Shown piece by piece: positions 39,560 to 60,400 of a stretch of DNA of 64,000 nucleotides. The translations under genes and the position numbers were made by a program. Source of the stretch: Macrophomina tecta (Eukaryota; Ascomycota; Dothideomycetes; Botryosphaeriales; Botryosphaeriaceae). The stretch is from assembly GCA_024180945.1 (NCBI GenBank), contig JAKSGN010000005.1, positions 248,001 through 312,000 on the forward strand, read 5' to 3'. How positions within the stretch are numbered: position 1 is the first letter of the stretch; each line of letters begins with the position of its first letter. The notes under the pieces are model-generated. The model made no database searches. It saw only the letters and a program-made list of their open reading frames with translations, and was not told the DNA's origin.

Positions 39560-39578
39560 GTCGGCCCTCGGACGCCGA
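39560..39578 (+). promoter_or_regulatory. AflR-type cluster motif, site G
   Basis: GTCGGCCCTCGGACGCCGA matches the seven-site consensus [C/G]TCGGN3TCGGCNGCCGA except for one base and keeps the palindrome TCGN5CGA. It lies upstream of the dioxygenase relic, in the position expected for that gene's promoter. Confidence 0.55.
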
Positions 39579-40503
39579 TACCCGCCATACCTACACACTC
39601 TTGTCTGCCCAAAACCGGCATAGTTCTACGTGCTTCAGAGGCTCCGGCCTTACGGGTGCAGGACAGTAATAGCAGTGCGGGGGCGAAGGCCCGAGAATGT
39701 CACTGTCCCTACTCGCATAGCCTTCGCTGCAACTCCAGCTGTTCCAACTCCTTGGCAAAATTCCTCTCTCCACCATCCCAACTTCAGCATGGATCAATCT
39801 TTTTCCTCTAACGAGAAACCGGAAAGCAACATAGCCAGGGCAGGTTTGTCCATTGGAGGTGACTTCTCCGTCGCCTTCCCGCTTCTCTGCACGCCATGGC
39901 TACCCGGCAGCTTGTTCGCCGTCAAGAAGGGCAGCCGCAAACCCCAACAAAACCTGCACCGCCACTTTTCCTTGTTGCTACAGCACTCTTGGATGGCACT
40001 GTGCGCAGCATATCGGGACGGAATTCGAACTCCCTCCGTAATGATGTCTCTACTACTGCAGCCCAAGCTCAACTGGTCCAATGTTCCGCGCAAATGATGG
40101 ATAGGGGGCACTGAGACAGCAAATCAATGGATTCTGGGCACTCGTACAATTAACGCTCCTGTATCACCTAATATCACATCCTCTTATTCTCAGAGGCCTC
40201 GTAGACTGCCAGTAGGATTTCGGAGCAACGGATAATGGAGATTTTGCTGCAGCCGCCAGAAATGCCCAAGCGCCCCAATGAATTCACTGATCGGGTGCAT
40301 TAGCTGTGCACACCACCTCATATTTCTCTGTACGCAGTTGAAGCGCACAATTCTCTTCTACCATCATTTGGACTACTTTTCCTCCCTGCCTCCTCGAACT
40401 ACTGCGCGTCCGCAAAGACTACACAGGTCCCAACGCTTCCTCACTGCACATGCCGCACCACCCAGACTCCTCAAACCATTCACTCCACTCGCTCCCCAAA
40501 CCA
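39579..40503. other. Intergenic, no gene recognised
   Basis: Lies between the dioxygenase relic's promoter side and the 3' end of the MFS gene. Several short frames occur; none is convincing. Confidence 0.4.
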
Positions 40504-42150
40504 TCACGACCTCGCCTCCCCAGCCGCATACAGACTCCTCGCTCTCAACTCCGGGCCCCACCGCCACAGCACCACCGGCGCCGCCACGCCCACTACTGCA
40601 CTCACACCCGCAATCAGCGTGCTCGCCCACCCATACCCCAGGGCCCCATACAACCGCGGTGCAATGCCCGGCAACACAAAGCCGCCCAATGACCGCAGCA
40701 GCGTCAGCGAGCCCATGGCGCTGGCAGCGTAAAGCGGGTAGCAGTCAATCACGTATGCCTGGATGCATTGATACCCGACGATGATGGCGGTGCTGAACAG
40801 CGTGACGCCGAGGTCGGGCAGCAGCCAGTGAAGACGGCGCTCGGCGCTCCAGCCGTAGAGAAGCTGGCCGAGCGGAAGCAGGATGGCCACAGCAAGCATG
40901 AGCGGGCACCGGAATTCTGGAGCGCCGGGGGAGGCGTAGCGGACTTTGAGACGTGCGTAGATCTGTGCAAGGAAGATCCGGGTTAGTTTGGTGTTGAGGA
41001 GATGAGGGTTAGGATCCTTGATTTCTTTTCTTTTCTTACCCTGTCATTAATGCGTCCGCCCACTTGGGAGCCGATTGTCAGGCCGGCGGCGATGAAGACG
41101 TAGTGCAGCGACGCGACCCGCGGCGGCAGGCCGTAGCGCTGCTCCCACAGCGTCTCGAAGGTGGCGATGGTCAGCTGGTTGAGGCCGAAGAGGAAGCCCA
41201 TGAACAGCGCAACGACCTGGACGATGGGCTGCGTGCCGAGCAGCACGAAGGGCCGCTTGAGCTCGCCCCCGAGCGACCAGATCGTGCGCGCTTTGAGGTC
41301 TTCTTCTTCTCCTCCACCGACGTCGACGCCGTCGGATGCCAGGCGCTGCTTCTTCCAGCGCAGGAGCAGCGGCTGGAAGGTTTCGTGCAAGAAGAAGTAG
41401 CCAAGGACGAGCATGCTGAAAGCGACCGCCGATGCGGTGAAGAATATCCATCGCCATGACCACTTCTCGACAATGTAGCCGGCCGCGATGGGGCCGATTG
41501 CTGGGCCAGCCAGGGGGCCGAGGGCATAGATGGAGAGGGAGAGCCCTCGGTCTTCTTTGTGCCAGAGGTCGCTCAGCACTCCCGCGCCAATCTGCAAAGC
41601 GGCGTTAATGTATTGAGAGTGTGAAACCAGGAGCAAGGTTTGACGTACGGACATCGGACCACTACCACACAGCCCGGACACGAAACGAAGCAGGATGAAG
41701 TGTGTCTTATTGGAAGTGAAGCCGCACAGCGTGTTCGCTACGAGGAAGAGGGAATGACCAGTGTTGAGCAGTCTCCTTCTGCCATACACTTCAGAGAGCG
41801 GAGCAACCAGGATGGGCCCAATACCCCAGCCAAGCAAGAAAAGCGTCATGGCCATTTGAACCTCGCCGCCCTCTCCCATATTGAGATCTTGCGAGATTTG
41901 CGTAAAGGCTGGAACGACCATGGCCGCAGTGCTAGGTATGAGCAGCCCATAGCATGATACAATGATGGCGACCGCCCATTTCCGCGCAGTAGACCAGGCT
42001 TTGGGATCTTCCTTACCCACAAGTGTCACGTAGCCCTCCTATGACCGTAAGTAAGAAATCTTCCAGCTTCAAAAAATTGGAGGATCTTCATACCACGTGA
42101 TCCCGGCCTTGGAGGAGCCCGGTGCGTTCGTTCGGGGTCGTAATCGCCAT
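40504..42150 (-). CDS. MFS multidrug-type exporter of the cluster
   Basis: Four exons (42150-42094, 42038-41649, 41591-41040, 40962-40504) give 485 residues with about 12 membrane helices. The first exon (19 residues, 'MAITTPNERTGLLQGRDHV') is short but joins in frame to 'EGYVTLVGKEDPKAWSTARK'. DHA1 hallmarks are present: motif A 'PLSEVYGRRRLL', and the drug/H+ antiporter motif C 'GPLAGPAIGPIAAGYI'. It should pump a small molecule out across the plasma membrane using the proton gradient. Site A of the cluster motif lies 146 bp before the start, which ties it to the pathway, probably as product exporter or self-protection. Its 3' end faces the dioxygenase relic. Confidence 0.88.
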
Positions 42151-42295
42151 CGCCGGGTAGTGTTGCTGCTCGTATGGGGCAACTGGCTCGATCAGGTCAA
42201 TCCACCAGTAAACCACGTTTTATCGCCATCTTCAGAGTAGCATTATCTACGCCTGCCAAGGTCCCAGCAAAGGACAGCCAGTTGTGGGTCTTTTC

Positions 42296-42314
42296 CTCGG
42301 CGCTCGGCGTCCGC
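42296..42314 (+). promoter_or_regulatory. AflR-type cluster motif, site A (exporter promoter)
   Basis: CTCGGCGCTCGGCGTCCGC fits the consensus with two differences in the right half (T for G, final C for A). It lies 146 bp upstream of the MFS start codon. It is the weakest of the seven palindromes, but the double TCGG spacing is exact. Confidence 0.6.
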
Positions 42315-42691
42315 GAGGCGACAGACAGCATTACGAGTCAACGGGCCGGCGCTCTTGCCCGTAGCCCATCACTGTCCCTTCGCTCGCCAGCGGCTCGGAC
42401 ACCCGGGACGCGAGTGCCAACGACTCGTTCCGCGCAACGTACAGATAGGTCCGGGAAGAGCGTACGCGAACCTGCCAGGGATCTGACTCATTACAACTTA
42501 CCTGCTCTGCAAACTCAAGCCGAATACGAAATTGGTGATAAGGGACTCGAATGGTGTGACTGCGAACGACGTAGAATTTTTGCTACTGCCAGATATGGAT
42601 TGAGTTGCAAGATCTTGCTCTCTATCGACCTCAGAGGCAAATGAGGCCGCTTATCTGTGGCGCCAAAGTGGCATGCAACGACAGAGCCTTT
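42315..42691. other. Intergenic between exporter promoter and lactonase 3' end
   Basis: About 375 bp with no gene of its own. It should hold the distal exporter promoter and the lactonase 3' untranslated region. Confidence 0.5.
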
Positions 42692-44015
42692 TTACCGTGC
42701 GAGCCTAGGACCGCGAAGCCCCAGTCTGACCCTTGCAATACCTCCCTTCCCTACCGCCCACAGTTCCTCCTGCTGATGACCAACCCAAGCGATATTGATT
42801 ACAGTGAAATTTGTCTGTACCAGCACAACTGGCGCGCCTTCAGGCGAGAGAATAGTAATGCCATTGCCAGTGGCGGCAATCACATAGCCGTCTTCCGACA
42901 CCTTGATGCCATCAGGGGCCAGCTGCATGGACTGATGGAACGGCCGCTTGTTGGTCAGGATCTTGCGGACGGGATCGACGTCGAAAGCGTAGATGGACCT
43001 CTTCCCGGTGGAGTTGTACTTAATCGGCGGCACGGGGTCAACGGCCGGGTCGATGACAGCCTCGCCAGCGCCGGTGTCTGTGAGATACAACGTCCGACCG
43101 TCTGGCGAGAACTGGGCGCCGTTGGGCTCGACCAGGGTGTCTTCAACTACAGTGACGAAGCCAGTAGAAGGGTTGAAGCGATATGTTGCGGGATTAATCT
43201 GAGGGGCGTACGAGTTGAGGCGTGTAGGGCGGCCATAGTCTGCGATAGGTCTCAGCCGTCGGGTCATTGGGCTGTGGGGGGGAGAAGGGCTGCTTACCGT
43301 TGTCGGTGAACCAGATGTGGCCGTCTCGGTCGATATCAAAATCGTCGGCACCGATGAAGTAGTAGCCGTAGTAGTTGTTAAGCAGGACCTGAGACTCGCC
43401 AGAAGTAGCGTTGAGGGTGTAGATGCCAGGGCGGTAGCTGCGGCCGTCAATGTTCTCATCGCCTCCCAAAGTGGAAAAGTACAGGAGACCGTTGTAGTAG
43501 CGACCGCCAACGGCGCCATAGATAGGCGGGTTCGCTATCTTCTCTCTCAGCACGGGGGGATCCTGATTCAGGTCGATGACCAGCTGAGGGAGAAAGCGAT
43601 GCTCTAGCCGGGCTAAGTACAGCTCGTTGGTCTCCGGCGACCAGACAGGAGCTTCGTGAGACATCAACCCTTTGGTAGAGAGTATGAAGTCAACGGCTGG
43701 TGCTGAGCCAAGCACATGCTTGGCGTCTTTCTCGTCCCAGACGACAAAGTCGGCGTCGCGCACGTGACGGAAGCTGGACTCCTGGGGCATGCGGGTGGAG
43801 CGGAAAGTGTCGGCATGTGCGATGTCGTTCGTGACCGGTCGCTCCCAGTCGCCGCGGATGACGGCGCCGCGCTTCCGCAGGCACACCACCGCAGGAAATG
43901 AGTACCCACTGCACTCTACAGCCAGCGGGTCGTCATGTCCAACGAGAGGCGTTTGCTCGCAGTTCACAAAGGCCGCGGCGGCAGCCAACGAGGCAAGAGT
44001 GATCAGTGGTTGCAT
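42692..44015 (-). CDS. Secreted SMP-30/gluconolactonase-type lactonase
   Basis: Two exons (44015-43298, 43239-42692) give 421 residues. The start at 44015 yields a signal peptide ('MQPLITLASLAAAAAFVNC'), so the enzyme is secreted. The six-bladed propeller blocks are 'LMSHEAPVWSPETNELYLAR', 'DDFDIDRDGHIWFTDNDYGR', 'DTLVEPNGAQFSPDGRTLYL' and 'MQLAPDGIKVSEDGYVIAAT'. The Glu, Asn and Asp ligands of the metal-dependent lactonase site fall in these. The family opens or forms lactones. In the cluster it could act on a gamma-lactone of the alkylitaconate product; secreted lactonases are, as I recall, also part of the sporothriolide cluster. It is divergent from the MmgE/PrpD decarboxylase-type gene, and their 176-bp gap carries motif site B. 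Confidence 0.82.
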
Positions 44016-44097
44016 GGCAGAAAGATTGTGAACCAGAAATTGAGGGCATGGCAAAGCGGAGGGAACGACATCTTTGAGGTTGTCGCTGTTGTCGCAG

Positions 44098-44117
44098 CTC
44101 GGCTGCCGACACGCGAG
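44098..44117 (-). promoter_or_regulatory. AflR-type cluster motif, site B (divergent promoter)
   Basis: Read on the minus strand: CTCGCGTGTCGGCAGCCGAG, one difference from consensus. It is centred in the 176-bp gap between the lactonase and decarboxylase start codons (83 and 75 bp away), so one site can serve both genes. Confidence 0.7.
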
Positions 44118-44191
44118 AATGCGATGCTTAAGAGTGTGGAGAATGTAGATGCATGCAGCGTGGGCAGGACAGAAGTAAGCCTTGAAGGAAA

Positions 44192-45933
44192 ATGAAGCAC
44201 CAGCTGGAGCACGAGGTCGAGGGCGATGGCACGACGGAGCAGCTGGCAAAGTGGATCGTGGGCCTGCGGGCAAACGAGGTGCCGCCGCGGGTGCTGGAGC
44301 GGGCCAAGCACTTGATCCTCGACGGCCTCGGGTGTGGCCTGGTCGGTGCTCGAGTGCCCTGGTCGGAGAAAATGCTGGACGCTGTGAGCCAATACGAGCC
44401 CGACGGGCCGTGCAGCGTCATCGGCAGCGAAAAGGTAAGTGCAAGACTCGGTTATCCACGCAGAGGAAGGTTGTTCCGCTCAAGGCGCCTGTCTCATCAC
44501 TCAACACTAGCCGCTTCTGAGTCAATGATGGTGCTGATCTTCTCTCCAGCGCTTCGGCCCGCTTGCGGCGGCAATCCTGAATGGCTCCATCATTCAGGCC
44601 ACCGAGCTCGATGACTATCACAGCGGCGGTCCGTTGCACTCGGCCAGCATCATCATCCCCACTCTGTTGGCCGCCGTTGAGGCCACCAAGAAAGACTTGC
44701 GCGTCTCCGGCCGCGATCTCCTCGTTGCCGCCGTCGCCGGTTTCGAGGTCGGCCCGCGAGCTGGTATAGCGCTGTACGGCCCGGACATGCTGACTCGGGG
44801 CTGGCACTCCGGTCCCATCTTCGGCAAGATACCCACTGCCACTTCATGCGTCCCAGCGCTAACCACAAGCAGGTTGTCCGGCGTCGGCCGCCGCGGCCGC
44901 TAGCCTCTTTGGCCTTGACGTGCGCCAGACGGAGAGTGCCCTCGGCATCGCCTGCACTCAAGCTGGATCGCTAATGGTCGCCCAGTATGAGGGCATGATC
45001 AAGCGCGCCCAGCACTCCTTTGCCGCTCGCAATGGCCTCTTCGGCGCCTTCTTGGCACGGGGTGGATACGAGGGCATGCGCAAGGTATTCGAACGGCCCT
45101 ATGGTGGCTTCTTGGCCATGTTCAGCGCTGGAAACGGACGCGACCCGCCATACAAAGTGCACGAGGTAAGCCGTCTTCGCTCAAATGACACTAATCTACG
45201 TGGCTGATAACCCGCGTCAGATAACTGCCGGCCTGGGCGACACCTGGCACACTGAGCTCATCCGCATCAAACTGCATGCCTGCGTCGGCGGGAGCCACGG
45301 CCAGATAGAGGTCCTCGAGAGACTGCAAGACAAGTACCCAGAACGCTTTGCGCGGGAGAAGCTACAGCACATCCGAAAGATCAATGTTCACTTGAGCCAC
45401 GCTATTTATGCTCACGATGGATGGGTCCCAGAGTCTCGTCCCTTGACGGAGACGGGAGCCCAAATGAACGCCGCTGTACGTATGCTTTTGTTAACTTTAC
45501 CGGTGAGATTGCATGCTGACAGCGATTGCAGTACATTGGCGCCGCCCAACTGACAGACCGTCAAGTGCTTCTGGAACAGTTCAGTCCCGCCAAGCTGGAC
45601 GACGACCTGATCTGGGAGCTCATCCACAAGACCGAATGTTTCCACGACCCGGAATTCGACAAGCCCGACCAAGCCACCGGCGCTCGCATCCAAATCGAGT
45701 TCGACGATGGTTTCACCGTAGAAGACTCCCTACCGTGGCCCAAGGGCTACGATCCTATCATAACTAACGAGGACATCCGCACCAAGTGGCGGAAGCTGTC
45801 GCGCTCGGTCATCGACGAAGAACGCGCGCAGCAGATTGAAGATCTGGTGCTGGGATTGGATAAGGCGGACGAGGCAGCAATTCATAAACTGTGTGATTTG
45901 CTTACTGGACCCGTCCGTAACGCTATGGCATAG
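44192..45933 (+). CDS. MmgE/PrpD family protein, cis-aconitate-decarboxylase type
   Basis: Five exons (44192-44434, 44550-44823, 44873-45165, 45221-45475, 45532-45933) give 488 residues. Family blocks: 'ERAKHLILDGLGCGLVGARV', 'AAAILNGSIIQATELDDYHS', 'GPLHSASIIIPTLLAAVEAT', 'LYGPDMLTRGWHSGPIFG' and 'ACVGGSHGQIEVLERLQDKY'. The third exon follows a GC-AG intron (donor GCAAGA at 44824), a rare but known form. The 'GWHSGPIFG' loop and overall length resemble itaconate-forming decarboxylases more than true methylcitrate dehydratases. The likely role is decarboxylation of an alkyl-cis-aconitate to an alkylitaconate in the cytosol. A second, different PrpD member lies at 58.6-60.3 kb, which fits a dehydratase plus decarboxylase pair. 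Confidence 0.8.
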
Positions 45934-47520
45934 AGTTTCCTGCCAGCTCTCATGCAACACAGACTTGCGTCCGCTGATGGCTCCACCTCCACTGTTCGGA
46001 ACATTTGCCGGTTACACGGTTCTGTTGCTTGTTTTTGATATGGGGTATGGTACGCCGTAAGCTTTTCTTCATATAGACTGGCAGAAAATACCATGTGGGT
46101 AGCGAAGTGCAATTAATAAAATATGCAAAAAAAAGAAAAAAAAAACCGGGGGCACTAGAATCAATCATTGCCATCCTTACCTTTTGAACATCGAGTTAAT
46201 CCCCAGTATCACGGCTCGACGCATGCCGGCAGTCAAACCCCCTCATTGCAAGCCGGCAGAGTGCGAAACTTGGCCCATGGCCTTACCAAACTCGCCACTA
46301 ATACATCAAGATCCACCCGCAAAGTCTGGTTCATTCCACCTCTCCCCTCCCCCGCAAAAAAAGCCGTCATATTTTCCACCCTCTACTTCCATCCAATCCC
46401 AACTCTCCGTTCTTATGCACCGCTGTCTCCGAATTTCACCGTATAATCCTCCCGAACTTGTAAAACAGCACTGGTATCGGAATAACGGCGATGGCCGGGA
46501 AGGAGAGTTGGTGTTGCGGCGCCCGAGTCAACATCCTTGCCAATGGCAGAAGTAGGATTTTAGTCTGACGTCTGGAGATAGGTCATTGCGTGGTTGCAAC
46601 ATAGCATATAACTAAAGATGATATTAAAAGCGCGAAATTAAGCAGTCTCGGTCATTCGTTGGCTTTTTTGGGAAAGCTGCTCGTTCAGGAGCGGTGGCAC
46701 AGAGCATGTTCTGCTGATAAATCAGGACTGAAGGGCGGGCATGCACGTTGGTAACCCCGCTCCTTGCAATTCTAATCAGAAGTCACATGCGGGCGAATCA
46801 TTGCGGCTGGACGTGACAGAGTGTCGTCTGTATCTGGCCGAGCTCCACTCGATCGGCGGCCAACCTCAGCGCGGATAACGTAATCATCTCGCGGGCCTCG
46901 GCGGCCGAATCCCGACCAGATTACAGAGACATTTGTTTCGGGAGCAGCAATATTGGACGAAATTCTGGGGCTGTCTCTTTCTTTCTCCTTTGGAAGCGAA
47001 CTTGTATTTTCTGGGAATTTTTGTTCAATTCATGCGCGGAAACTTTTAGTAAAAACTGTTCAGAGACCTCTTTCAGGGCCGGCATGAGGATACGGGTTCC
47101 ATTTCCATTTCATTTATTTAATCCTTTTCAGTAGTAAAAGGCAAAAAATTGTCGAAATTAGTCATATCAGCTAAAGCATATCATTGGTAGGGGTTTCGTC
47201 ATAGCCAGAGAAGACAGCTCATGCGATTCTTTACACGTTAATCACTTCCGACCCACTCGGAATACGAGAAGTAGTCCCACGTGAACAGAGATAAGTCCTA
47301 CCATGGAAACAATATGCACCCACCTCCCGCGAGGGAAATTCTGATTGAGTAGTATTGATCCCATCTGCTCACTGGAACACCAATTCCGACCCACAAAAGA
47401 TCACTTGAACTCCACAAAACACCACCAGCGTGCATATCGCAAGCAGAATTCTAGACACATATGTTCAAAAACAACGGAAGCGGAAAACCAGTTACTGTGC
47501 ATTGAACACCAAATTCGTCA
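45934..47520. other. Intergenic, 1.6 kb, with orphan motif site C
   Basis: The decarboxylase and the AflR-like regulator both end here, so no promoter is expected. A poly-A/G tract near 46123-46145 may mark a 3' end. No protein can be read on either strand, although motif site C sits in the middle. A lost gene is possible. Confidence 0.5.
46897..46916 (-). promoter_or_regulatory. AflR-type cluster motif, site C (orphan)
   Basis: Minus-strand reading GTCGGGATTCGGCCGCCGAG fits the consensus fully when the first base is allowed as C or G. It lies between two convergent gene ends with no gene to control. A weaker, shorter-spaced lookalike lies about 40 bp to the left. Confidence 0.55.
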
Positions 47521-48645
47521 TCAACCCCCCGACAACTTGCACATATGCCTCGCCACGCGCTCTGCCTCATTCCGCGTAAACCGGTGTAACAGCTCTCTCC
47601 CCCTCCTCTCCCACGCCTCCACTCCTCCCTCCCCCGCGTGTTCTTGCCCCTCTCTCTCCATCCGCGCCCCCATCTCCTCCACCACGCCCGCAATCTTTCG
47701 CACATCCAGCAACACGATCCGGCACTTCAGCGCCGCCACATCCTCCGCGCGGTCGACCACCGTGTACGACCCGACGCGCACGGGCGCCGCGTCGGCGCCC
47801 ATGTACACGGCCTCGTGATAGGTGGCCAGCAGCTTGTTGAGGCAGGCGTAGAGGGCGTAGTCGAGGGAGGCGGGATGCGGGGAGGTGTCGGGGCACGCGA
47901 GCACGTCGCGGATTACTTGGAGGAGGGCGCGGTTGAGGCGCAGCACGTGGTCGAGCGTCTTGCCTTCGACCGGGCTTTGTTGCAGGTCGCGCAACGTGCG
48001 GCCGAGGATGTCGAGGCAGGCGCAGGTGCGGGTTGTGCTGTTGGTGGTGGAAGTGCTGCGGTGGGAGGAGGCGGAGGAGGGGGGTTGGAAGGCAAGGGAG
48101 CTGGTGGCTGCGGCGATGTTGATAGATTCCGTCTGGTGCGGCGTCCCAATTGGAGAGGATGATGATGAGGATGGCGATGGGACGGAGTGTGTTGGTGGCG
48201 CGGGAGACTCGGTGTACAGCGGAGGGGGCGCCCCGAACCAGCCTCCTCCTGCCAATTCCAGCGATGGGAAGGATGATGCGTACTCAGGGAGAAAGAACGT
48301 CGGCTGGGAGAAGTCCAACATTGAACCGCCAAACTGTGTGGTTTCGTCCGTTTCCGGAGACGTAGCGCTGGAATCCCCAACGAAAGTGTAAGGCGAAGCT
48401 GGCGAGCGAGGAGCATCGGGGGAAGATGGAGACCGGGGCTCCTCCGGAGATGGATAGGGTTCCGTCTTGGATTTTGGAGTGCGTCCGACGGGCATGGACA
48501 TGCTCCGGACGCAGGTGTAGTCCCGTTTCCTGCACCGAATACAGTCCCTTTCGTCCTCGTAGATGCACTTGACTTTGGCGTTATGGCACCGATCGCAGGA
48601 TGCTCTGAGGCGCGGGGTGCTTCTTGTCGATTTGCCTTTGACCAT
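47521..48645 (-). CDS. AflR-like Zn2Cys6 pathway regulator
   Basis: A single exon of 374 residues. The zinc cluster occupies residues 17-45 in the pattern C-x2-C-x6-C-x7-C-x2-C-x6-C ('CDRCHNAKVKCIYEDERDC', then 'CRKRDYTC'). A Pro/Ser-rich linker follows. The C terminus begins with 'CACLDILGRTLRDLQQSP' and includes 'LLATYHEAVYMGA' and 'LLDVRKIAGVVEEMGARM', the layout of the AflR-type regulatory domain. AflR proteins bind TCGN5CGR, and exactly that palindrome sits in the promoters of this cluster, including this gene's own (site D, 273 bp upstream). This strongly suggests it is the nuclear activator of the cluster and autoregulates. That it binds these sites is inference. Confidence 0.85.
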   Translation of the reverse strand: MVKGKSTRSTPRLRASCDRCHNAKVKCIYEDERDCIRCRKRDYTCVRSMSMPVGRTPKSKTEPYPSPEEPRSPSSPDAPRSPASPYTFVGDSSATSPETDETTQFGGSMLDFSQPTFFLPEYASSFPSLELAGGGWFGAPPPLYTESPAPPTHSVPSPSSSSSSPIGTPHQTESINIAAATSSLAFQPPSSASSHRSTSTTNSTTRTCACLDILGRTLRDLQQSPVEGKTLDHVLRLNRALLQVIRDVLACPDTSPHPASLDYALYACLNKLLATYHEAVYMGADAAPVRVGSYTVVDRAEDVAALKCRIVLLDVRKIAGVVEEMGARMEREGQEHAGEGGVEAWERRGRELLHRFTRNEAERVARHMCKLSGG

Positions 48646-48917
48646 GCTGCTTGGATCGACGGCTCATCAGCGAGCTGACCTTGGCCGGCCCGGTGAGGAT
48701 GCTCACCCTTGTTCTTCTCGCTGTGTGCCGTAGGTGTGGGGCTTCGGCCTTGTGTGCGGATTTTCAGTGGTCGGAACGATTCTCCCAACAAAACCAGTAA
48801 ACTATGGAAATATTAAAGCCTTAGCTTCTCTTGCGGGCCGGAGGTGTTGCTGCTCGCGGCATTCGCTCTCAAAGCCCGTCGGACCGCACTGCCCGAGCCT
48901 TCACTTCGGTGCGTAAG

Positions 48918-49671: not shown

Positions 49672-52600
49672 CTAACCACATAAAGTCTCACACCCTCCAT
49701 CCGGCGCCCTCGACGCCAACGCAATCGCAATCGCCACATTATCCGAATGCGAGATGCTCACCCGCACCTCCTTGACGTTCTGCGCTTTCGCCGCGCTCCT
49801 TGCCTCCCCATGCAACTGTTAAACTCAGGTGTTAGAACCTCCGCAAAAAAGAGAAAAAGAAAAGAGGGAAGGGCATTAACAACTCACATTCACGACCGGT
49901 ACACCCCCTTTACTCAACACCTCGATGCCCCTCATCCCCGCGCCAGCTCCCCTCGACGCAACATTCAGGCTCTTGAACACGGCCTCTTTTGCCGCCCAGC
50001 GGCCCGCCAGCGACGCGCGCGGGTCCGGCGCGGCGCGGCAGTACGCCAGCTCGGCGTCGGTGTAGTTCCGGGCCAGGAAGACGTCGTTGTCGATGTTGAC
50101 GGCAGACACGTCCTCGACATCCACGCCCACGGTGGTGGTCGGCGGCGGCGCCTGCCGGCCGCGCGACGGCGGCAGCAATTCGCGCGCCGCGGCCGCGAGC
50201 GTGCTGGCGAGGTCCATTTTGGGAGCGGCGTCCTCGCGGTCGCTGTTGTAGCCGCTGTCGAGCGGGCCGGCGGACGCGGATGCCGACGCCGTTTCGCAGT
50301 CCGAGTCCGAGTCGCAGGAGGCGGACGGGTGCAAGTTCTGCGGGTCGAAGGACAGCAGGCCGTCGGCGCCGAGCTGGACGCGGGCGTGCGGGTCGAGGAA
50401 GACGGCGGCCTCGTCGGCGGCTTGCCACGGCGGAGTCGCTTTCGGGCGGACGAGGTCGTTGGCGATAAGCCCTTCGGCGAGGCGGGCATTGGCAGTGCGC
50501 TGGCGCCGCAGGGCGCGCGCGCGGTAGGTGGTGTAGGTGCGGGCGTCAAGGGCGGCGAGCAGGTAGCGCGGGGCGACGCCCAGGACGAGACCGCCCTTCT
50601 GGCCGAAGCCGAAGGAGGTGAGCATGAAGGCTTTGATGGCGTTGGGGCCGAGGGAAATGGACTGGGACGGGAAGACGAGGTGCGAGAATTGGCGGAGGGC
50701 GGCGTCGACGTTGTCGGCGTTGCGGTTGCCGGGGACGGTCCCGCTGGCGAGGATTTGCAGACAGCCATTGAGCATGAAGGCACCGGCAGCGCCCTTGGGG
50801 TGGCCGGGCGTGCGGCCGAGATGTGACATCTGCGTGTTGACAACATTTGATTCGTTCTTGTCGTTGGCCTTGGTCGATGTGCCGTGGAACGAGGCCACCT
50901 GGATGTCGTCGATTGTCAAACCCCAGACGGCCAATGCTGCCTTCATCGGTGAGATGCCTGCATCCTGGTGGCGGATATCGTGCGACCACATGCTTTGGGC
51001 AGCACGTGTCTTGGTAGCGGCGGCCGCTTCGATAGCACGCACAGCACTCTCCACGTCTTTGCTGCGTGCTGTGGCGTTGCGCAGCTGCTTCTTTCGCCAC
51101 TCTTGAATCTGTGCAAGGTCTTCCTCCATATGGCGGCGGCGGTACTCAAGGTTGAGCAGTGGGGAGGATGCGGAGCGCGGATCCTCGCGGGCAGCCGTCA
51201 GAACACCTTGACCGGGTGCTGGGACTGAACGGCCAATGCGGTCTCCTGCCATCTGGGTATGCGCAACAATGGCGTGGATCGGAGCGCCAATCTATGGATA
51301 TATTAGTACAGCAACACAAAAGGGTGTAGGAGCCACTCACCTTCAACGCCAATTCAGCCGTCATCAGAATCTGAACACCGCAGCCAGCCGATTCGACAAA
51401 TCCTGCACGTGAGCTGGCCGTCGGACGTGACATCTCGCGCGGCAGACGCCCAGCAGCCATCTCTGCCACAGAGCTGGCAGTAGCCTTCATGTTTCCGAAC
51501 TCGTATGAGAGTTCTTCCTGGAAATCATCAGTGCCACCCACAATCGCCATCTTGGCACCTCCAGTCCGGAGAGCCTCGCAAGCAATGTCTAGCGACTCGA
51601 TAGCGGTAGCACAGGTGCCAGAGGGCGATCGGATCGGACCAGCTGAGGAGAGCAACAGCATGTTGGACCAGGCATCGAGGGCATTGCTGAACGACTCCTG
51701 TAGCACATCATTCTTGGCCTCCTTGTCAAGGTAGCGGTCGCGATAGACGGCGCGCAGGGCAAGAAGGCTGCCAGCGCCCGAGCCCACGCAGTTGGCCAGC
51801 TCGGAGACGTGGATGTGTTGCCAGATCTCGAAGGGATCGCCGAAGCCGGCGTGGACTAGCGCTTCGTTGACGCAGCAAAGCGTGTAGATGGTGACCGGGT
51901 CGACCTGGGAGATGATATCATCGGGGACGCCGTAGCGGCGGGGATCCCAGCCTTTCGGAAGTTGACCAGCGACCTGACGGTCGAAGCTGACGGCCTTGGG
52001 GACGAGGAAGTGAGCGCCTTTCTTGACTTGCACGGTATACGAGTCAGCATCGGCAGGGCGGATATCGACGTTGTCACCATGGCGCTTCTTGAACGCTTGA
52101 GCGGTGGTTCTGTCGGCGCCAAAAGCAGGCAGGTCTTGTTCGACAACAACCTCGTGGAGCAGTTCCTTCGAAGTAGGATCGTAGTTACCAAGACCTTCCG
52201 GTTCGATGACACGGATGCCGGCGTGCTTGTCGATGTACTCTCCATACTTTTGTTCGAAGTCAATGTCTTGCACCGGCTCTCCTGATTCCGCATCAACCCA
52301 ACCCACGTACGGCTTGCCCTTGGCTTCGCCATCGCAGAAGCGGACCTGATCTCAATGTTAGCCTCCACGAGACAGAAAGACCAGGAAAAGGCAGAAAAGG
52401 GTGGATGATCGGGCGTGGCGGCCTGAGGATTAGATGCAGTTGCCTAGGCAGGAAGCCGGAAAAGCCAATAGGTGATCGAGCGAGGAGCAATAAAAAAAAA
52501 AGCAAAAGGAGGCAGATATAGAACTTACCAGACCCATCAGCCAGGCCATCTCAACATATCCCGCCCACGACAGCTTCCCCTGCTGCTCGACCTCCCACCT

Positions 52601-55542
52601 CGTCCGCGCGCTGCCCCACGGCCCGAGTTCCGAGTACCCGACAACCACGACTGTGCGGCTGAGATCAATCATGTTCTGCAAGCGCGGCGCACCGCTCACC
52701 ACCTCATCATGCGAGGGGAGGCTCGGGTAGCCGAACTGCACCGTTGCGCGCGGCGTGGACGACGATGACGAGGGGGCTTTCTCCGCCTTCGGCTTCGCAG
52801 GTCCATCCAGCACGCTCTGCTGCTGCTTGCGCTCTGCCGCCAGGGCCTTGCGCAGACGGCTGTCGTCCAGGATGCTCTTGCGGGCGCCGGTGATGACGGC
52901 TTTGAGGTCCGGCAGAAACTGCAGGCCGCCATTGAGGTCGGCGTACACGGGGGCCTCCTCGCACAGGGCGCGGATCTGGGGCGAGAGGAGGGCCAGGATG
53001 TTGAACGCCATCTCGGGCGTATTGAACGTGAGGCAGTTCCCGCGCTCTTCGATGGCGCGGGCGACGATGTTGTTGCCGCTCATGAGCCCCGTGCCGCGGG
53101 TCCAGCCGATGACGGCGCCGCACACGGCGACGTAGTTGCTCCAGTTCTCGCTGCGGAAGCGGTTAAACAGCGTCTCGAGGCCAAGCTTGGACTCGGCGTA
53201 CAGGCCGTCGCCGCCGAAGGTGCCGTGGTTGGGCGAGAGCGGGAGGACGGCGATGGTCGGGTGCGTGTCGAGGCCGCGCGCTTCCTTGGCCTGCTTGACG
53301 GCGCCGAGCAGCCGCAGCACGTTGGTCAACATGATGCGGTGCGCGAGCTCGGACTTGCCGTCGATGCGGTCGATTTCCTGGCCGGTCTCGCTGATGGCAG
53401 CAAAGGGGATGATGAAGTCAAGGTCGCCGCCGTAGCTCGACGGGCCGGCGTAGATGTGCGAGACGAGCGCTTGCACGTCGGTGAGGCTCCCTTGGTTGAA
53501 AGGCAGGACGGAAAGCTCGGAGCCGGCGGCGCCGTGCTCGCGGTACATGGTGTTGTAGAACTCGGCAACTTGGGAGGCGGCCCTTGAGGTCGTTACAACT
53601 ACGCGCGCGCCACCTGCAATCAGCCCGCGCACGACTTCGGCGCCAATCGATCCGGGGCCGGCACCGGTAACGAGTGCAGTCTTGCCGGCGAAGCTGAGAC
53701 CACTGCTGCCGCCTTGAGCGAGTGCTTCCAGCAGCTTGGCTGTGGTAGTGCTATCGTAATTCCATGCACCACCCTCGTTCTTGCGCAGGTGCACGTAGGG
53801 GACGAGTTCTCCGGTCGCTGGGTCGGGCAGACCGTGTGCCACCAGTTCAGGATAGGTCTGGAATTCAGTCTCGCGGGGAACCTCCGAGTAACTGATGATA
53901 CCGTCTTCATCCACCGAGGTCTGGGGAGCGACGGGCTTCGCAGTGTACTTGAAGACAGGTGTTGTGACAGGCCTCGCCCGGGCGGCAGTCAACAGCTTCT
54001 GAGCAACCGCCGAGCTGAAGTCATTGGGCGCGATGCTCTCAGCCTTGGCGAAGAACTTGGCGATGGTGTCGCAGGTGGCGTCCCAGCGGTTGAGGATGTG
54101 ATGCATCCTGGCGGGATCGTCGAGGTCCTCGCGGCTGTAGAGCGTCTGCAGCAGGTCCTGGCGCACCCAGTTCCAGGCCGAAGTGTAGCGACGCTCCTTG
54201 GCCGCATCGAACGCCGGCTGAATGCCGTTCCAGAAGGCGTCGTCGAACTCTTCGCCCCAGCGCTGCAGCCGCGCGGAGAGGGCTTCACGGACTTCCTCAA
54301 GCTCGTCCAGCTGTGCGCGGGATGCGGATTCGGCGTTCATGCCGAGTTGCGATGAAAGAAGTTCATACTGCCGGCGGAGGTACTCCTCCTGCTTGGCTGT
54401 GATATGACCCAAGCTGGCGGCGTCGATGACGGCGGCGTGCTGCTGTGCTTGCGCGCCGCCACCCTGTCCTCCAGGAGTCAAGGGAATGTGAGCAAAGGCA
54501 CCGTAGCGCTTGACCACGCCATCGATGAACTCCTTGGCCGCCTCGACCGACGAGATTCTCTGCGCTGGCTCCATAGTTACCGCGAAACCCAGCACAGCCA
54601 GTTGGCGCTGTGAACCAAGCCCCCAATAATTCTCAAGGTGCTGTTTCACGGCCGACATGCTGTTGAACCCAGCTGGCATCTTGGCCGACATCAGGCGTGC
54701 GACGAGTCCTGCCAGTATCTTGCCGTGATTGCCCGAAAAGCCGCCCTCTACCGCCGAGGCGATGGCTTCGGCGGACAGGTCCTCACACCCATCGGGAAGA
54801 GACCCGAATTCGACGCCAAGGTCTCCGACGAGTTCGTTTTGGAGTGTTGATTTACCTGGAACGTGTGTCAGAACAGGCATGTGTCAAAAAAGTAAGTGGA
54901 TTTCTCACCTGCAGACAGGTCGCGGAGAGACTTATCAAGCGGCAGCTCGTCAAAGGCTTTCTTTAGCTTCTGCGCACTAAGTGCAATGACGACGTCAAGA
55001 GCACGGAGAGGAACATCTTCGACAAGCGCTGCCGGTCCTGCCGCAGCCGCCATGGGGGGAGGCGCAGCTGCCTGAATAGGAACGGCGGCGGGAGCAGCAG
55101 CTGGAGCAATCTCTTGTGATTCCTCGACTGCTTCCGGCGCTGCTACTCCCTCGTACTCGTAGTAAATTTTAGATGCGTCATCGGCTGAGGATAAGAATGT
55201 GCGGCTAGTAGAGGTGAGCGCATCTTGTGCTGACAACTTCTTCTTCCAAGTCTTCTGTGCCATGGTCGCCAGCACTTTCGACGGCCCAATTTCTATTATC
55301 CGCCGCACGTTGGCCTCCTTGAGGAGCTCATCCTGTGTTTCGATCCTGGTAAAAGTCAGTAGACACTCCAGCTGGAAAGCAGAAGTGGGAGTGCCGCATA
55401 CCATCTTACTGGATTGGCAAATTGGTAGCTGTGAAGATGTTAGCTGGGAATGACCGAGTTTCACAGGCACCGCTTACGCCAAAAGCTCAACCAATAGCGT
55501 CCTCGCCAATTCACGCTCCGAAGTGTTTTTCTTGCTAGCCAT
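49672..55542 (-). CDS. Dedicated fatty acid synthase subunit alpha (ACP-KR-KS-PPT)
   Basis: Seven exons (55542-55478, 55428-55402, 55345-54909, 54855-52529, 52345-51341, 51291-49888, 49815-49672) add to 1,802 residues in one frame, slightly short for the family. The N terminus is 'RTLLVELLAYQFANPVRWIE'. The ACP attachment Ser is residue 179 in 'AGKSTLQNELVGDLG', whose Gly codon is split by intron 3. Ketoreductase: 'ALVTGAGPGSIGAEVVRGLI' near 570. Ketosynthase: active Cys near 1197 in 'GTCATAIESLDIACEALR'. The phosphopantetheine transferase domain from about 1670 reads 'VGVDVEDVSAVNIDND' and 'GRWAAKEAVFKSLN'. With FAS beta it should form the cytosolic dodecamer that makes the acyl chain. It is divergent from the alkylcitrate synthase, across motif site E. 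Location in the cluster indicates a pathway-specific copy, not the housekeeping one. Confidence 0.92.
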
Positions 55543-56110
55543 CTTTGCTGAGTGCAGACACTACGTTCTCGTGTAGCCTGGATGCGGGGATGCCTTTGCC
55601 AGTAATCGTCAGCCCGGCCCATAAGAGACGCGTGCAAATGTGTACCATGTACCTTATCTTATTTCAAACCCCTGAGAAGGATACGGGTGGCTATGGGAAA
55701 AAAGCTGCTAAGTGAACAGGCTAGCCTGGAGTAGGAAACAAGGAGTATCCTTCTATCGCTTCATATACAACGAGCGAGGACCGACAGCTCAGTCCAGCAA
55801 TCAGAGGACAAACCTCCGGGAATATTAAAGATAAGACTTCTTGCTGTTCAATGGCCATTTTGATACCTACTTCTGGTTAGGTGGGTATCCGTTTGTCCGC
55901 TCGGTGCTCGGCGGCCGGCTGCCGCAGCGCGCTCCCACCATCCGGAGCCCGGCTACCAACCGCCGTTTACCGGCAGTTGAACGCGAGTGCATGAAGAGAA
56001 TATGGTGAAGTGAGCCCATTTGAATATGAAGCGCAGTCAGCTTCGAATGATTAATTAGCTTCGACAAGGACGTGCAAGCGAGCGCTCATCCATCCTGCAC
56101 ATAGACCAAA
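55543..56110. promoter_or_regulatory. Divergent promoter, FAS alpha and alkylcitrate synthase
   Basis: A 568-bp gap between start codons, with motif site E at 55900-55918. Both genes act in consecutive steps, so shared control makes sense. Confidence 0.6.
55900..55918 (+). promoter_or_regulatory. AflR-type cluster motif, site E
   Basis: CTCGGTGCTCGGCGGCCGG matches the consensus except for the last base, where G still satisfies TCGN5CGR. It lies 358 bp before FAS alpha and 193 bp before the citrate-synthase-type gene. Confidence 0.7.
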
Positions 56111-57704
56111 ATGGCGACTGTTACCGTCACTGCTCCCTCCAACGGACACGTGGCCAAGAACTCGCTCACTGTCACTGATAACAGGACAGGAGAGGCATTC
56201 GAGTTCCCCATCACCCACAATGCGGTCAATGCGTCAGATTTCAAGAAGATCAAGGCCCCTGAGGACCCCGAGAACATCGCGGACCAGAACGAGCAGGGCC
56301 TGCGCATCTTCGATCCGGGCTATGGAAACACCTGTGTCAGCGAGAGCAAGCTTACATTCATGTACGAAGCATCATGTATCCGTTCATGGTCGAGCCAGCT
56401 AACATGAACAAAGTGATGGCCTGAAGGGTATTGTCCAGTATCGGGGCTACGACATCAGCGATCTGGTCCAAGCCAAGAAGGGATTTCTCGATACTGCACA
56501 CCTCCTTTGGTTCGGCACGCTGCCGTCTCCGGCAGAGAAGCAGCAGCTGCAGGACAAGTTGAACGCCGTTCCGCTCATCGACGACAATGTCTTCAACGTT
56601 ATCCGGTCAATGCCGTAAGTCAAGTCCTTGCCACCTCCTCCTGCCATCTCCAACCTCATGCTGACGACCACCCAGCAAGAATGGCTCACCCCTCGGCACC
56701 ATAATCGCCGGCCTCATGGCTCTGCAATCCTCCGACATGTCCCTCGTCCCCGCGCACGCGGCGCAGAACCTCTACCTCGGCAACCCGTCGCTCGTCGACG
56801 CCCAGCTCATCCGCACCATGCAATCGCTCTCGCAAATCACGGCCGCCGCGTACTGCCACCAGACCGGCCGCACCTTTACCCCACCCCGCGCAGACCTCTC
56901 CTTCATCGAGAACTTCCTCCTCATGATGGGCCACGCGGAGCCGGGCACCGGCCTCCCGAACCCGGCCTACGTCGCCAAGTTCGAGCGGCTCTGGCTGCTC
57001 ATCGCCGACCACGAGATGACGTGCTCGACGGCCGCGATGCTGCACACCGCGTCGTCGCTGCCGGACGCGCTGTCCTGCCTGGCCTCGGCCATCTCGGCGC
57101 TGTACGGGCCGCTGCACGGCGGCGCGATCGAGGTGGCGTACAAGCACATCCGCGAGCTCGGGTCCGTCGACGCCATCCCGGCCAAGATCGCGCGCGTCAA
57201 GGCGGGCAAGGAGCGCCTGTACGGGTACGGGCACCGGGTGTACCGCGTGCCGGATCCGCGGTTCAGGCACATCAGGGAGGTGCTGGAGGAGCTGACGGCG
57301 GAGATCGAGGACGACCCGCTGCTGAAGGTGGCGTTCGAGCTGGATCGCGTGGCGTCGACGGACGAGTATTTCGTAAGCAGGCGGCTGAACCCGAACGCGG
57401 ACTTGTTCGCTGGACTGGCGTACAACGCGATGTGAGTACTGTGTTCCGCTAACTTTCCGGTCGATGATGGCAGAGGAGGCTGACTCGGCGTGCGATTGAA
57501 CAGGGGCTTCGAGCCGGAGTGGATTCTGCCCATTTCGTTGATTTCGAGGGCACAGGGCTTGCTGGCGCACTGGAAGGAGGCAATGTGTAAGTTCGTCCCA
57601 TTCTCCTTGGATGTGATGCAGACTGACTCGAAGAAGCCGGGTCCGCTCGTATCTGGCGTCCAGGCCAGATTTACACTGGGGATGTCAACAAGAAGCTTGA
57701 GTAA
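56111..57704 (+). CDS. Alkylcitrate synthase (citrate/2-methylcitrate synthase family)
   Basis: Five exons (56111-56361, 56414-56614, 56676-57431, 57504-57586, 57637-57704) give 452 residues. All three catalytic residues are present: His298 in 'LYGPLHGGAIEVAY', His337 in 'YGYGHRVYRVPDPRF' and Asp393 in 'NPNADLFAGLAYNAM'. Other family blocks include 'IVQYRGYDISDLVQAK' and 'ILPISLISRAQGLLAHWKEA'; the last short exon supplies 'IWRPGQIYTGDVNKKLE'. The protein starts 'MATVTVTAPSNGHVAKNSLT', with no mitochondrial presequence and no peroxisomal C-terminal signal, so it is not the housekeeping enzyme. It should condense an acyl-CoA made by the neighbouring FAS with oxaloacetate. The last acceptor (after 57636) was chosen because the alternatives give stops. 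Confidence 0.88.
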
Positions 57705-58602: not shown

Positions 58603-60267
58603 CTAAAGAGCAAAGAGATCAAGGAACTCATTCACAGGTGTCTGCTGGAGCTTTTCATCATCCTGCGCCAGCTGGAGCACGGCCTCAACCTTTTCGGGCG
58701 CCAGCTTCAGCGACAGATTCCTCCTCGCCTTCTCATACACCAGGGGGATCGATTCCGGCCGGCGGAAATGCCCCAGCGGATACTCCACCACCACATCATC
58801 CAACTCCGTTCCATCCTTCAACGTCACCTTGAGCGCGTTCGTTACACTCCTCTTCTCCGGATTGTGGTAGTCTGCCGTGAACTGCTTATCCTCTACCATC
58901 GTCGTCTTCCTCCGCAGTTCCTCTACCCGCGGATCCGTCGCCCACGCCGACCCATCCTGGTAATCTTCCGTCTCGATCTGCTTGCCCTTCAGCAGCACGA
59001 CAGCCACCATGTACTTCAAGCAGTGATCGCGGTCTGCCGGATTATGGAGCGGGCCCTGCTTGTTGATAATGATCATGCCCGCTTCCTGCGTCCTGACGTC
59101 GATCTTGGCGATGTCCTCCTCCGCCTTCAGCCCCCTCTTCCTCAACTCGTCCGCGATGACCAGCGCCGCCTCGACCGCGGTCATGCCATGCCCCTCGGCC
59201 GTGTTGACCTTGAACAGCACCGTCTCCGCCACCCAGCTGCCAAACGGCTTTGCGAGCACAAACTCCTTCCCGCCGAACAGCACGTCGTAGAACCCCCAGC
59301 GGCTCGCCGTCAGCGCCGAGTGCGCGCCGGGCTGCCCCGCGCGCGCCAGCAGCGCGAGGTGCACCGCCCGCTGGCAGGCGTCGCCCGCCGCCCAGCCTTT
59401 GCGCGGGCCCGTGTTGGGCGCTTGCCGGTAGGCGCGCAGCGGGTGCCCGTCGAGCCAGGCGTGCGAGACGGCGGCGAGGGCTTGCGCGCGGGGCAGGCCG
59501 ATCAGCCACGATACGACGGCCGTCGAGGCGACTTTGACGAGGATCACGTGGTCGAGGCCGACGCGGTTGAAGGCGTTGGCGATTTGGAAGACGCCCTGGA
59601 TTTCGTAGGCTTTGATGAGCGCGGTGAGGACGGTGCGGACGGTGATGGGGAGGTTGGCGGTGCGGGCGAAGATGGAAGAGGCGGCAAGGATGGCCCCGAG
59701 GTTGTCTGTTGCGTGGGATGTGGTTAGCTGGTTGGGAGTGGGACGGGAGACTGCTATGATGCTAGAGTAAAGGTATGGGTGAGAATGGAAACTGTAGCCC
59801 ATGCGCTGTTCAGATCTCTCCAGCCCCGTGTTTTCATTCCGGTGGGGCGTGCGTCAAACTTGGGGAAAGGTTTCTGGGATTGAGGCTAATGAATAACCAG
59901 AGGAAAACATCGTACCTGACGGGTGGCCCCATTCCGCACCGGGAAAAGCATCGTTGTGATCGAGATAGCGGATGGATGCACCCATATCGAATGCGCCTTT
60001 GTAGATATCGAGCTGGTATGATGTTCCAGGCAGCTTGAAGCCGTTGGGCAGAATCTCGGGGCTGCCGACGGGGGGACCAACCAAGCTGGCCAGCTCCGCG
60101 CTGGTGGCCAGACCCTCGCAAGCACAGCCCAAGGCATCGATCAGCGTGGCCTTTGCGCGGGCCCAGGCCGCGGGACTCTCCGGCGTATAGTCGTACGCAT
60201 AGTCGACAATGGAGGATATGACGCTGTCATACGGGTGGACCGAGTTGTCATCGCCGGTTGGGGCCAT
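58603..60267 (-). CDS. Alkylcitrate dehydratase (2-methylcitrate dehydratase, PrpD type)
   Basis: Two exons (60267-59916, 59705-58603) give 484 residues, the usual PrpD length. The N-terminal part reads 'KATLIDALGCACEGLATSAE' and 'GASIRYLDHNDAFPGAEWGH'. After the intron come 'DNLGAILAASSIF', 'AYEIQGVFQIANAFNRVGLD', 'DGHPLRAYRQAPNTGPRKGW' and 'GPLHNPADRDHCLKYMVAVV'. 'LDHNDAF..AEWGHPSDNLG' is the hallmark of true methylcitrate dehydratases, in contrast to the other MmgE/PrpD gene of the cluster. It should remove water from an alkylcitrate to give an alkylaconitate. The intron is 210 bp. A Met at 60324 would add a hydrophobic leader; I prefer 60267 because the family is cytosolic or mitochondrial. 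It is divergent from FAS beta across motif site F. Confidence 0.88.
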
Positions 60268-60380
60268 GGCGAAGGGGCGAAAACAGAGCAGCAGCAAGGA
60301 TAGAGAGAGCTGGAGGTGTCTCAACGGAAGAAAACGCTCGCCAATACTTCAAACTTACGGTTCTGGATGTTGAACGGGTC

Positions 60381-60400
60381 CTCGGTTCTCGGCGGCCGAG
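60381..60400 (+). promoter_or_regulatory. AflR-type cluster motif, site F
   Basis: CTCGGTTCTCGGCGGCCGAG, a perfect match. It lies 114 bp before the dehydratase start and 303 bp before the FAS beta start, in their shared 435-bp divergent promoter. Confidence 0.72.

What the first reader, a model, noticed from the sequence alone, without database searches (positions are those of the whole stretch)
39560..60400. Seven copies of a 19-bp AflR-type motif outline a regulon and its limits
The pattern [C/G]TCGGN3TCGGCNGCCGA occurs at 39560, 42296, 44117 (-), 46916 (-), 48937 (-), 55900 and 60381, each with at most two mismatches. I noticed none in the 39 kb to the left. Each contains TCGN5CGR (one differs in its last base), the known AflR site, plus an extra TCGG half three bases upstream. 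The one AflR-like gene in the window carries it in its own promoter. The extended form is longer than the published AflR palindrome and may mean a dimer plus an extra contact, or a second protein.
Basis: partly seen in the sequence, partly recalled or inferred. Interest (0 to 1): 0.9.

Follow-up and report, generated by a model that had tools for sequence, protein, structure and literature searches.

The report
Promoter code of an alkylcitrate-type cluster
Seven copies of a repeated DNA signal mark the promoters of a fungal gene cluster that probably makes an alkylcitric-acid type compound, and the same signal marks a half-decayed sister locus elsewhere in the genome, which suggests that one regulator now controls genes at two places.

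Summary
All seven sites are where stated, in promoters of a FAS/citrate-synthase (alkylcitrate, oryzine-like) cluster of a Macrophomina-like fungus.

Beyond the finding: (1) the site reads better as four half-sites at a 7-bp pitch; a CpG at +24/+25 is in 7 of 9 sites. (2) The two loci decayed reciprocally: here the regulator is open while TauD and one MFS are dead; on C27 the regulator is dead while TauD and MFS show no stops in the frames seen. Sites remain at both. (3) The odd site at 46.9 kb is the promoter of the dead MFS gene.

"AflR-type" is only partly right: the strict AflR consensus fits 2 of 9 cores, and the regulator is a borderline AflR-family member. FAS beta is interrupted by a Tc1/mariner element here. 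A new variant of a known kind.

The parts
38084..39337 (-). decayed TauD-type dioxygenase gene
   Evidence: tblastx and tblastn to the C27 TauD gene, with stop codons in the frame
39560..39578 (+). site 1, promoter of the decayed TauD gene; exact triple half-site
   Evidence: best-conserved 25-bp block between this promoter and its C27 paralogue
40504..42150 (-). MFS transporter A (with introns)
   Evidence: Pfam MFS_1 3.9e-34 for the frame 40983-42038; the frame 40504-41043 alone gave no family; start read from the sequence
42296..42314 (+). site 2, 146 bp upstream of MFS-A
   Evidence: 2 mismatches
42692..44015 (-). SMP-30/gluconolactonase-like (SGL) lactonase gene
   Evidence: Pfam SGL 3e-17 for the frame 42692-43534; the frame 43194-44417 alone gave no family
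44099..44117 (-). site 3, shared promoter of SGL and PrpD2; symmetric, TCGC on both outer arms
44192..45933 (+). MmgE/PrpD gene 2, cis-aconitate-decarboxylase-like
   Evidence: Pfam MmgE_PrpD in 4 of 4 frames, 3 over the cut-off; the frame 44538-44903 hits IRG1 / cis-aconitate decarboxylases in the PDB, the frame 45520-45933 hits nothing
46409..46507 (-). relic of a second MFS gene (C-terminal 33 aa, with a stop)
   Evidence: 66.7% identity to the C27 MFS C terminus
46898..46916 (-). site 4, promoter remnant of the dead second MFS gene; exact triple half-site
   Evidence: 46845-46918 aligns at 76% to the C27 MFS promoter
47521..48645 (-). cluster regulator, Zn2Cys6 with a borderline AflR domain, 374 aa
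   Evidence: Pfam Zn_clus 22.4 bits, AflR 20.7 bits; 98% identical to Macrophomina phaseolina MS6 MPH_00110
48919..48937 (-). site 5, 274 bp upstream of the regulator's own ATG; exact triple half-site
49876..55542 (-). fatty acid synthase subunit alpha (several exons; the 3' end may lie a little further left)
   Evidence: Pfam Fas_alpha_ACP, FAS_I_H, ketoacyl-synt, Ketoacyl-synt_C, ACPS
55900..55918 (+). site 6, shared promoter of FAS alpha (358 bp) and citrate synthase-like gene (193 bp)
56111..57704 (+). alkylcitrate-synthase-like citrate synthase
   Evidence: Pfam Citrate_synt 2.6e-59; 83% to a Lasiodiplodia theobromae homologue and 69-74% to the five closest named Aspergillus ones
58603..60267 (-). 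MmgE/PrpD gene 1, 2-methylcitrate-dehydratase-like
   Evidence: Pfam MmgE_PrpD N and C; best PDB hit 2-methylcitrate dehydratase 8.7e-119, cis-aconitate decarboxylases only about 2e-6
60381..60399 (+). site 7, shared promoter of PrpD1 (114 bp) and FAS beta (304 bp); exact triple half-site
   Evidence: distances read from the sequence
60703..64000 (+). fatty acid synthase subunit beta, interrupted; probably continues beyond the window
   Evidence: Pfam SAT and FAS_N; Acyl_transf_1 downstream in L009
62609..63921 (.). Tc1/mariner-type element inside the FAS beta gene
   Evidence: inverted ends with TA at both borders; HTH_Tnp_Tc3_2 1.4e-11

Best explanation
The sites are the operators of one pathway-specific Zn2Cys6 regulon. 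The regulator at 47.5-48.6 kb binds an array of TCGG half-sites set 7 bp apart, TCGG-N3-TCGG-N3-CCGA-N3-(S)CG(M). The inner inverted pair would be held by two monomers, and the outer halves by further monomers that bind cooperatively. By this it switches on itself and the genes for making, trimming and exporting an alkylcitrate/alkylitaconate-type product: FAS alpha and beta, alkylcitrate synthase, dehydratase, decarboxylase, lactonase, dioxygenase and MFS. Divergent gene pairs share one site.

A second, paralogous locus on C27 (MFS, dead regulator, TauD) carries the same sites. It would now be driven in trans by the regulator of this cluster, because each locus has lost what the other keeps.

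Shown: the sites, their confinement to the two loci, their promoter positions, and the decay. Inferred: binding, activation, stoichiometry and control in trans.
For: - Genome-wide the triple half-site occurs 7 times: 4 here, 2 at C27:464893/466470, 1 at C6. The spacing +1 control gives 9 scattered hits, none at either locus; the reversed control gives 10. Poisson P for 4 in 20.8 kb is about 1e-11.
- Out-of-sample support: C27 turned up in the genome scan with the window's motif. Only afterwards did a protein search find there a stop-carrying relative of this regulator, fourth of 13 rows by E-value and, the window's own gene apart, the row with the highest identity (52% over residues 207-290, 1 TGA, 1 TAG).
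- Each of the seven window sites sits upstream of a cluster gene or its relic.
- Of 48 half-site arrangements, only the direct repeat at N3 (7 in 21.0 kb against 5 in 129.5 kb) and the inverted repeat at N3 (5 against 1), with their sum at N10 (5 against 4), stand out. All others are at most 3 in the cluster.
- A CpG at +24/+25 is in 7 of 9 sites; the other 54 flank offsets counted have at most 3; background rate after CCGA 78 of 1083.
- The four-half-site form (searched as a 24-bp pattern): 12 hits, 6 (5 places) here, 2 at C27, 4 elsewhere.
- The DNA-binding domain is conserved in a 51%-identical homologue (P0002).
- TerR is a precedent for monomers binding repeated TCGG-type half-sites (PMC4360782 passages).
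Against: - No binding, expression or deletion data were available.
- In one of three paralogous promoter pairs (TauD) the site is the best-conserved block. In the MFS pair it is not among the best blocks, and in the regulator pair no site block appears.
- The fourth half-site was seen after the fact. Its genome-wide total (12) is no higher than that of the reversed control (13); only its clustering is unusual. The off-by-one control finds 6 hits, one of them a real cluster site. Two of 9 sites lack it, and the two C27 sites are not independent of sites 1 and 4.
- Site 44117 has TCGC, not TCGG, as its outer half, and sites 42296 and 55900 have a changed right half.
- FAS beta is interrupted in this isolate, so the pathway may be silent here whatever the sites do.
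Confidence: 0.75

Rival explanations
1. Only the inner palindrome TCGGCNGCCGA (an AflR- or GliZ-like dimer site) matters. The outer TCGG and the far CpG are by-products of small numbers.
For: The inner core is present in all seven window sites in exact (4) or changed (3) form. Known Zn2Cys6 sites are often two half-sites, for example GliZ TCGGN3CCGA (proposed, PMC4006717 passages).
Against: The exact palindrome occurs at 128 places genome-wide, 4 of them here, so it cannot mark the regulon alone. The outer TCGG is in 6 of 7 window sites and both C27 sites. The exact triple form leaves only 1 place outside the two loci.
Confidence: 0.2
2. The outer half is bound by a second protein (another Zn2Cys6 factor or a cofactor), so the element is composite.
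For: The window has another Zn2Cys6 gene with a Fungal_trans domain at 33-35 kb, and a similar stretch lies downstream of the C27 TauD gene.
Against: All four halves are versions of the same 4-mer at one 7-bp pitch, which fits one protein better. That second gene has no site with 2 or fewer mismatches within about 4 kb.
Confidence: 0.12
3. The sites are fossils: the cluster is dying, and the sites remain only because decay is recent.
For: TauD and one MFS are dead here, the regulator is dead on C27, and FAS beta carries a Tc1/mariner element.
Against: The paralogous protein pieces have diverged to 39-67% identity (TauD 39-48%, regulator 52%, MFS fragment 67%) while the four sites at the TauD and second-MFS genes of both loci stay exact, so selection probably lasted long after the duplication (inference). 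The regulator is one open frame of 374 codons. The element sits cleanly in FAS beta, as if recent (inference).
Confidence: 0.25
4. Chance or base composition.
For: The bare TCGN5CGR is at chance level, and the 18-mer with up to 1 mismatch is as common genome-wide as its reversed control.
Against: Clustering at two loci that share the same regulator family; Poisson P about 1e-11 here and about 4e-8 for C27.
Confidence: 0.01

Closest known systems
AflR sites of Aspergillus (TCGN5CGA / TCGSWNNSCGR; A. flavus ChIP-seq 18-bp palindrome)
   Same: A cluster-specific Zn2Cys6 regulator; each element contains TCGN5CGR cores. The A. flavus ChIP-seq motif was also read as two overlapping 11-bp sites (PMC7344883 passages).
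   Different: Here the core is TCGG(C/A)NGCCGA in most sites, meets the strict consensus in 2 of 9, and sits in a 25-bp array of four half-sites. The pathway is alkylcitrate-type, not aflatoxin-type.
TerR sites of the terrein cluster (TCGGHHWYHCGGH)
   Same: Direct repeats of CGG with a 5' T. Monomers bind, and a second monomer can be added (PMC4360782 passages).
   Different: Spacing differs (N5 between CGGs there, N4 here), and the TerR consensus has no inverted pair.
GliZ motif TCGGN3CCGA (proposed, not proven in the source)
   Same: Identical to the inner inverted pair (PMC4006717 passages).
   Different: No outer halves in the proposed motif. In the gliotoxin cluster gliZ and gliA lack it, whereas here the regulator's own promoter has it.
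Alkylcitric acid cluster (akc) of Aspergillus niger
   Same: FAS alpha and beta, citrate synthase, 2-methylcitrate dehydratase, a cluster regulator, plus an unlinked decarboxylase gene (PMC7338620 passages).
   Different: AkcR carries PF04082, whereas this regulator is AflR-like. No binding motif is named in its main text (0 occurrences of 'motif' and 'binding site').
Oryzine cluster (ory) of Aspergillus oryzae
   Same: Nearly the same parts list: FAS, citrate synthase, dehydratase, aconitate decarboxylase, lactonases, TauD, transporters (PMC6162547 passages).
   Different: Different regulator (OryO, similar to S. pombe C530.05). It also lists a truncated P450 and an acyl-CoA ligase, not among the frames I scanned here (not searched for specifically).

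Membership tests
AflR-family regulator | Zn2Cys6 domain | tested here: met
   PF00172 22.4 bits over cut-off 21
AflR-family regulator | AflR domain PF08493 over its cut-off | tested here: inconclusive
   20.7 bits in hmmscan (cut-off 24); 23.8, or 24.8 with its neighbours in the frame, in the genome search
AflR-family regulator | cysteine spacing CX2CX6CX6CX2CX6C | tested here: not met
   Spacing read from the sequence is X2-X6-X7-X2-X6; the AflR spacing is quoted in PMC7344883
AflR binding site | TCGN5CGR | tested here: met
   Present in 7 of 7 window sites as TCGGNNNTCGG and/or the core
AflR binding site | strict consensus TCGSWNNSCGR | tested here: not met
   Core fits in 2 of 9 sites (39560, C27:466470), by reading; the W position is C in the other 7
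AflR binding site | bound by the cluster's AflR | not testable with these tools
   needs a binding assay
Oryzine/alkylcitrate FAS-type cluster | FAS alpha + FAS beta + citrate synthase-like + 2-methylcitrate-dehydratase-like | tested here: met
   FAS beta is interrupted
Oryzine/alkylcitrate FAS-type cluster | aconitate decarboxylase, lactonase, TauD | tested here: met
   PrpD2 (one exon without PDB hit), SGL, TauD decayed here and without stops in the matched frame on C27
Oryzine/alkylcitrate FAS-type cluster | product is an alkylcitrate derivative | not testable with these tools
   no chemistry; FAS beta is interrupted in this isolate

The most novel reading that the evidence does not exclude
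A four-half-site, 25-bp operator with a 7-bp pitch is bound cooperatively by an AflR-like factor as a dimer of dimers. It ties two chromosomal loci into one regulon after reciprocal gene death: the regulator survives at one locus, and the dioxygenase and transporter at the other.
Probability: 0.4. Interest if true: 0.65.

Novelty: new variant of a known kind. Interest (0 to 1): 0.52.

Why it matters
It gives an almost unambiguous DNA code for one pathway: 6 of 7 genome-wide exact copies sit at two loci that share the same regulator family. Such a code can find unlinked pathway genes, a known difficulty for alkylcitrate pathways (an unlinked decarboxylase in A. niger, PMC7338620 passages). It also offers a natural case in which two copies of a regulated module have decayed in complementary ways while the promoter sites stayed. 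And it makes a testable claim about how AflR-like factors use more than two half-sites.

Tried and rejected
Bare TCGN5CGR as the signal: rejected, 88 against 91 expected. The 11-bp palindrome alone: rejected as sufficient, 128 places genome-wide (count whole, list cut). C6:2995390 as a further member: it lies about 22.4 kb from an AflR-domain gene at C6:2972.8 kb, but the 10 kb around that gene holds no site with up to 2 mismatches, and about 9-10 chance copies are expected (controls); treated as chance. C5:1384663/1387995, a pair of 1-mismatch hits: the neighbourhood shows a bZIP-like frame and no cluster genes, read by eye without a family search; treated as chance. Site 44876 lies in the PrpD2 coding region. 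C2:672514 and C3:168629: L006 and L008 show tannase-like and NRPS-like frames, read by eye; not followed. The other 1-mismatch hits were not looked at one by one. Orthologous promoters: the DNA collections open to me hold prokaryotes, viruses and phages, plasmids and E. coli, and metagenome scans were capped at 0, so not attempted. The citrate-synthase search (120 of 1924 candidates at E up to 1e-60) listed no M. phaseolina MS6 entry; not explained. Structure prediction was not run, as it would not show DNA contacts. The background used for spacing counts is not independent: it includes L018 and L019, fetched because of hits, and the C27 flanks L014 and L017.
Full report
WHAT IS THERE. The window is G000:C5:248001-312000 of a 54.1-Mb fungal genome. 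Its regulator is 98% identical to MPH_00110 of Macrophomina phaseolina MS6, so the source is that species or a close relative (inference). From 38 kb to beyond 67 kb lies a cluster of FAS alpha, FAS beta, citrate-synthase-like, 2-methylcitrate-dehydratase-like, cis-aconitate-decarboxylase-like, SGL lactonase, MFS and AflR-like regulator genes, plus a decayed TauD dioxygenase. The parts list is close to the oryzine cluster (PMC6162547, passages) and the alkylcitric acid cluster (PMC7338620, passages). The citrate-synthase-like protein is 83% identical to one of Lasiodiplodia theobromae and 69-74% to the five closest named Aspergillus ones; an A. lentulus one is at 45%. The product here is unknown.

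THE SITES. All seven are confirmed. Distances to the start codon, read from the sequence, are: MFS-A 146 bp, SGL 84, PrpD2 75, regulator 274, FAS alpha 358, citrate synthase 193, PrpD1 114, FAS beta 304. One search printed four of these (SGL, PrpD2, PrpD1, FAS beta) from start positions that were one base off; the figures here are corrected by eye. Three sites serve divergent gene pairs. The site at 46.9 kb first looked misplaced, between two 3' ends. It is best read as the promoter of a lost MFS gene: 33 codons of that gene's end remain at 46409-46507, 66.7% identical to the MFS on C27, and the DNA around the site aligns at 76% over 76 bp with the C27 MFS promoter.

GENOME TEST. At up to 1 mismatch the 18-mer gives 39 hits, 8 of them (6 places) here, 2 at C27 and 29 elsewhere; the reversed control gives 39. 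The exact triple half-site gives 7 hits: 4 here, 2 at C27, 1 at C6. The reversed control gives 10 and a spacing +1 control 9, none at either locus. Poisson P for 4 in 20.8 kb is about 1e-11 and for 2 in 1.6 kb at C27 about 4e-8. The palindrome alone has 128 places, 4 here; the direct repeat alone has 1549 hits, fewer than its reversed control (2570), about 0.6 expected in 21 kb against 7 seen. These probabilities are for a motif that was defined on this window; C27 is the out-of-sample confirmation.

THE SECOND LOCUS. C27:462.3-468 kb holds an MFS gene, a broken relative of the regulator and a TauD gene. The regulator relic is 52% identical over residues 207-290 with 1 TGA and 1 TAG; its DNA-binding half was not found by tblastn in C27:464001-467000. 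The C27 TauD frame of 241 aa has no stop, whereas the two C5 TauD pieces hold 1 TAA, and 1 TGA plus 1 TAG. The MFS-regulator neighbourhood is thus shared by both loci, and each has lost what the other keeps. That the C27 MFS and TauD genes are whole was not tested beyond open frames. In the TauD promoter pair the best-conserved 25-bp block of 415 bp is the site (22 of 25). In the MFS pair it is not among the best blocks, and in the regulator pair no site block appears.

ARCHITECTURE. Of 48 half-site arrangements tested only the direct repeat at N3, the inverted repeat at N3 and their sum at N10 exceed 3 copies in the cluster. Beyond the 19-mer, a CpG lies at +24/+25 in 7 of 9 sites; none of the other 54 flank offsets exceeds 3, and the background rate after CCGA is 78 of 1083. 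Binomial P is 3e-7 for 9 sites, or 4e-5 for 5 of the 7 window sites, before allowing for 55 offsets. The half-sites then fall at 2-5, 9-12, 16-19 and 23-26 of the 19-mer's numbering, one every 7 bp, 25 bp in all. Searched as a 24-bp pattern (outer half TCGS, right half CCGN, the CpG), this form has 12 hits: 6 (5 places) here, 2 at C27, 4 elsewhere; its reversed control has 13. With the CpG moved by one base there are 6 hits, one of them site 5, and 11 in the reversed control. Site 3 is symmetric, with TCGC on both outer arms.

SPECIFICITY. The genome search gave 10 matches to the AflR domain at E up to 0.01, 9 over the cut-off, and 13 rows for this regulator, some of them two rows of one gene. 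None of the other AflR-like genes in those two lists, the C27 relic apart, lies within 20 kb of an exact triple site; the nearest is about 22.4 kb away (C6), and 10 kb around that gene has no site with up to 2 mismatches.

MECHANISM. Best reading: cooperative binding of one Zn2Cys6 regulator to an array of TCGG half-sites, with self-activation. TerR shows that such factors can add monomers at repeated half-sites and prefer a T before CGG (PMC4360782, passages). Binding, activation, stoichiometry and control of C27 in trans are inferences.

KNOWN OR NEW. No paper in the held library carries TCGGNNNTCGG or TCGGCNGCCGA as written (15 papers, 0 occurrences of these two). Searches for Macrophomina with FAS clusters (10 of 10 listed), AflR with overlapping repeats (5 of 5), Macrophomina with AflR (10 of 18), alkylcitrate terms with binding motif (12 of 885) and cluster motifs in Botryosphaeriaceae (10 of 22) listed no title on this regulon; of most of these papers only listings were seen, and the library lacks most subscription papers. 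The sporothriolide paper was not held.

CAVEAT ON THE ISOLATE. FAS beta is interrupted by a Tc1/mariner-type element at 62609-63921, so the pathway is probably not productive in this isolate. It is described only.

Noticed in passing
62609-63921: Tc1/mariner-type element with inverted ends and TA at both borders sits inside the FAS beta gene.
   Followed up: partly
L015/L016 (C27:462.3-468 kb): Paralogous locus with MFS, broken regulator relative and TauD without stops in the frames seen; complementary decay to this cluster.
   Followed up: yes
46409-46507: 33-codon relic of an MFS gene explains an apparently misplaced site.
   Followed up: yes
33095-34972: Second Zn2Cys6 regulator with Fungal_trans domain beside the cluster; a similar stretch lies downstream of the C27 TauD gene, so it may belong to the duplicated module.
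   Followed up: partly
G000 C31:721 kb, C5:2493 kb, C3:146 kb, C35:3081 kb: Four further FAS alpha loci, one of them presumably the housekeeping FAS; the C3 one is about 70-85 kb from AflR-like genes at C3:61-76 kb.
   Followed up: no
38084-39337: Decayed TauD gene keeps an exact site in its promoter although its coding frame is broken.
   Followed up: yes
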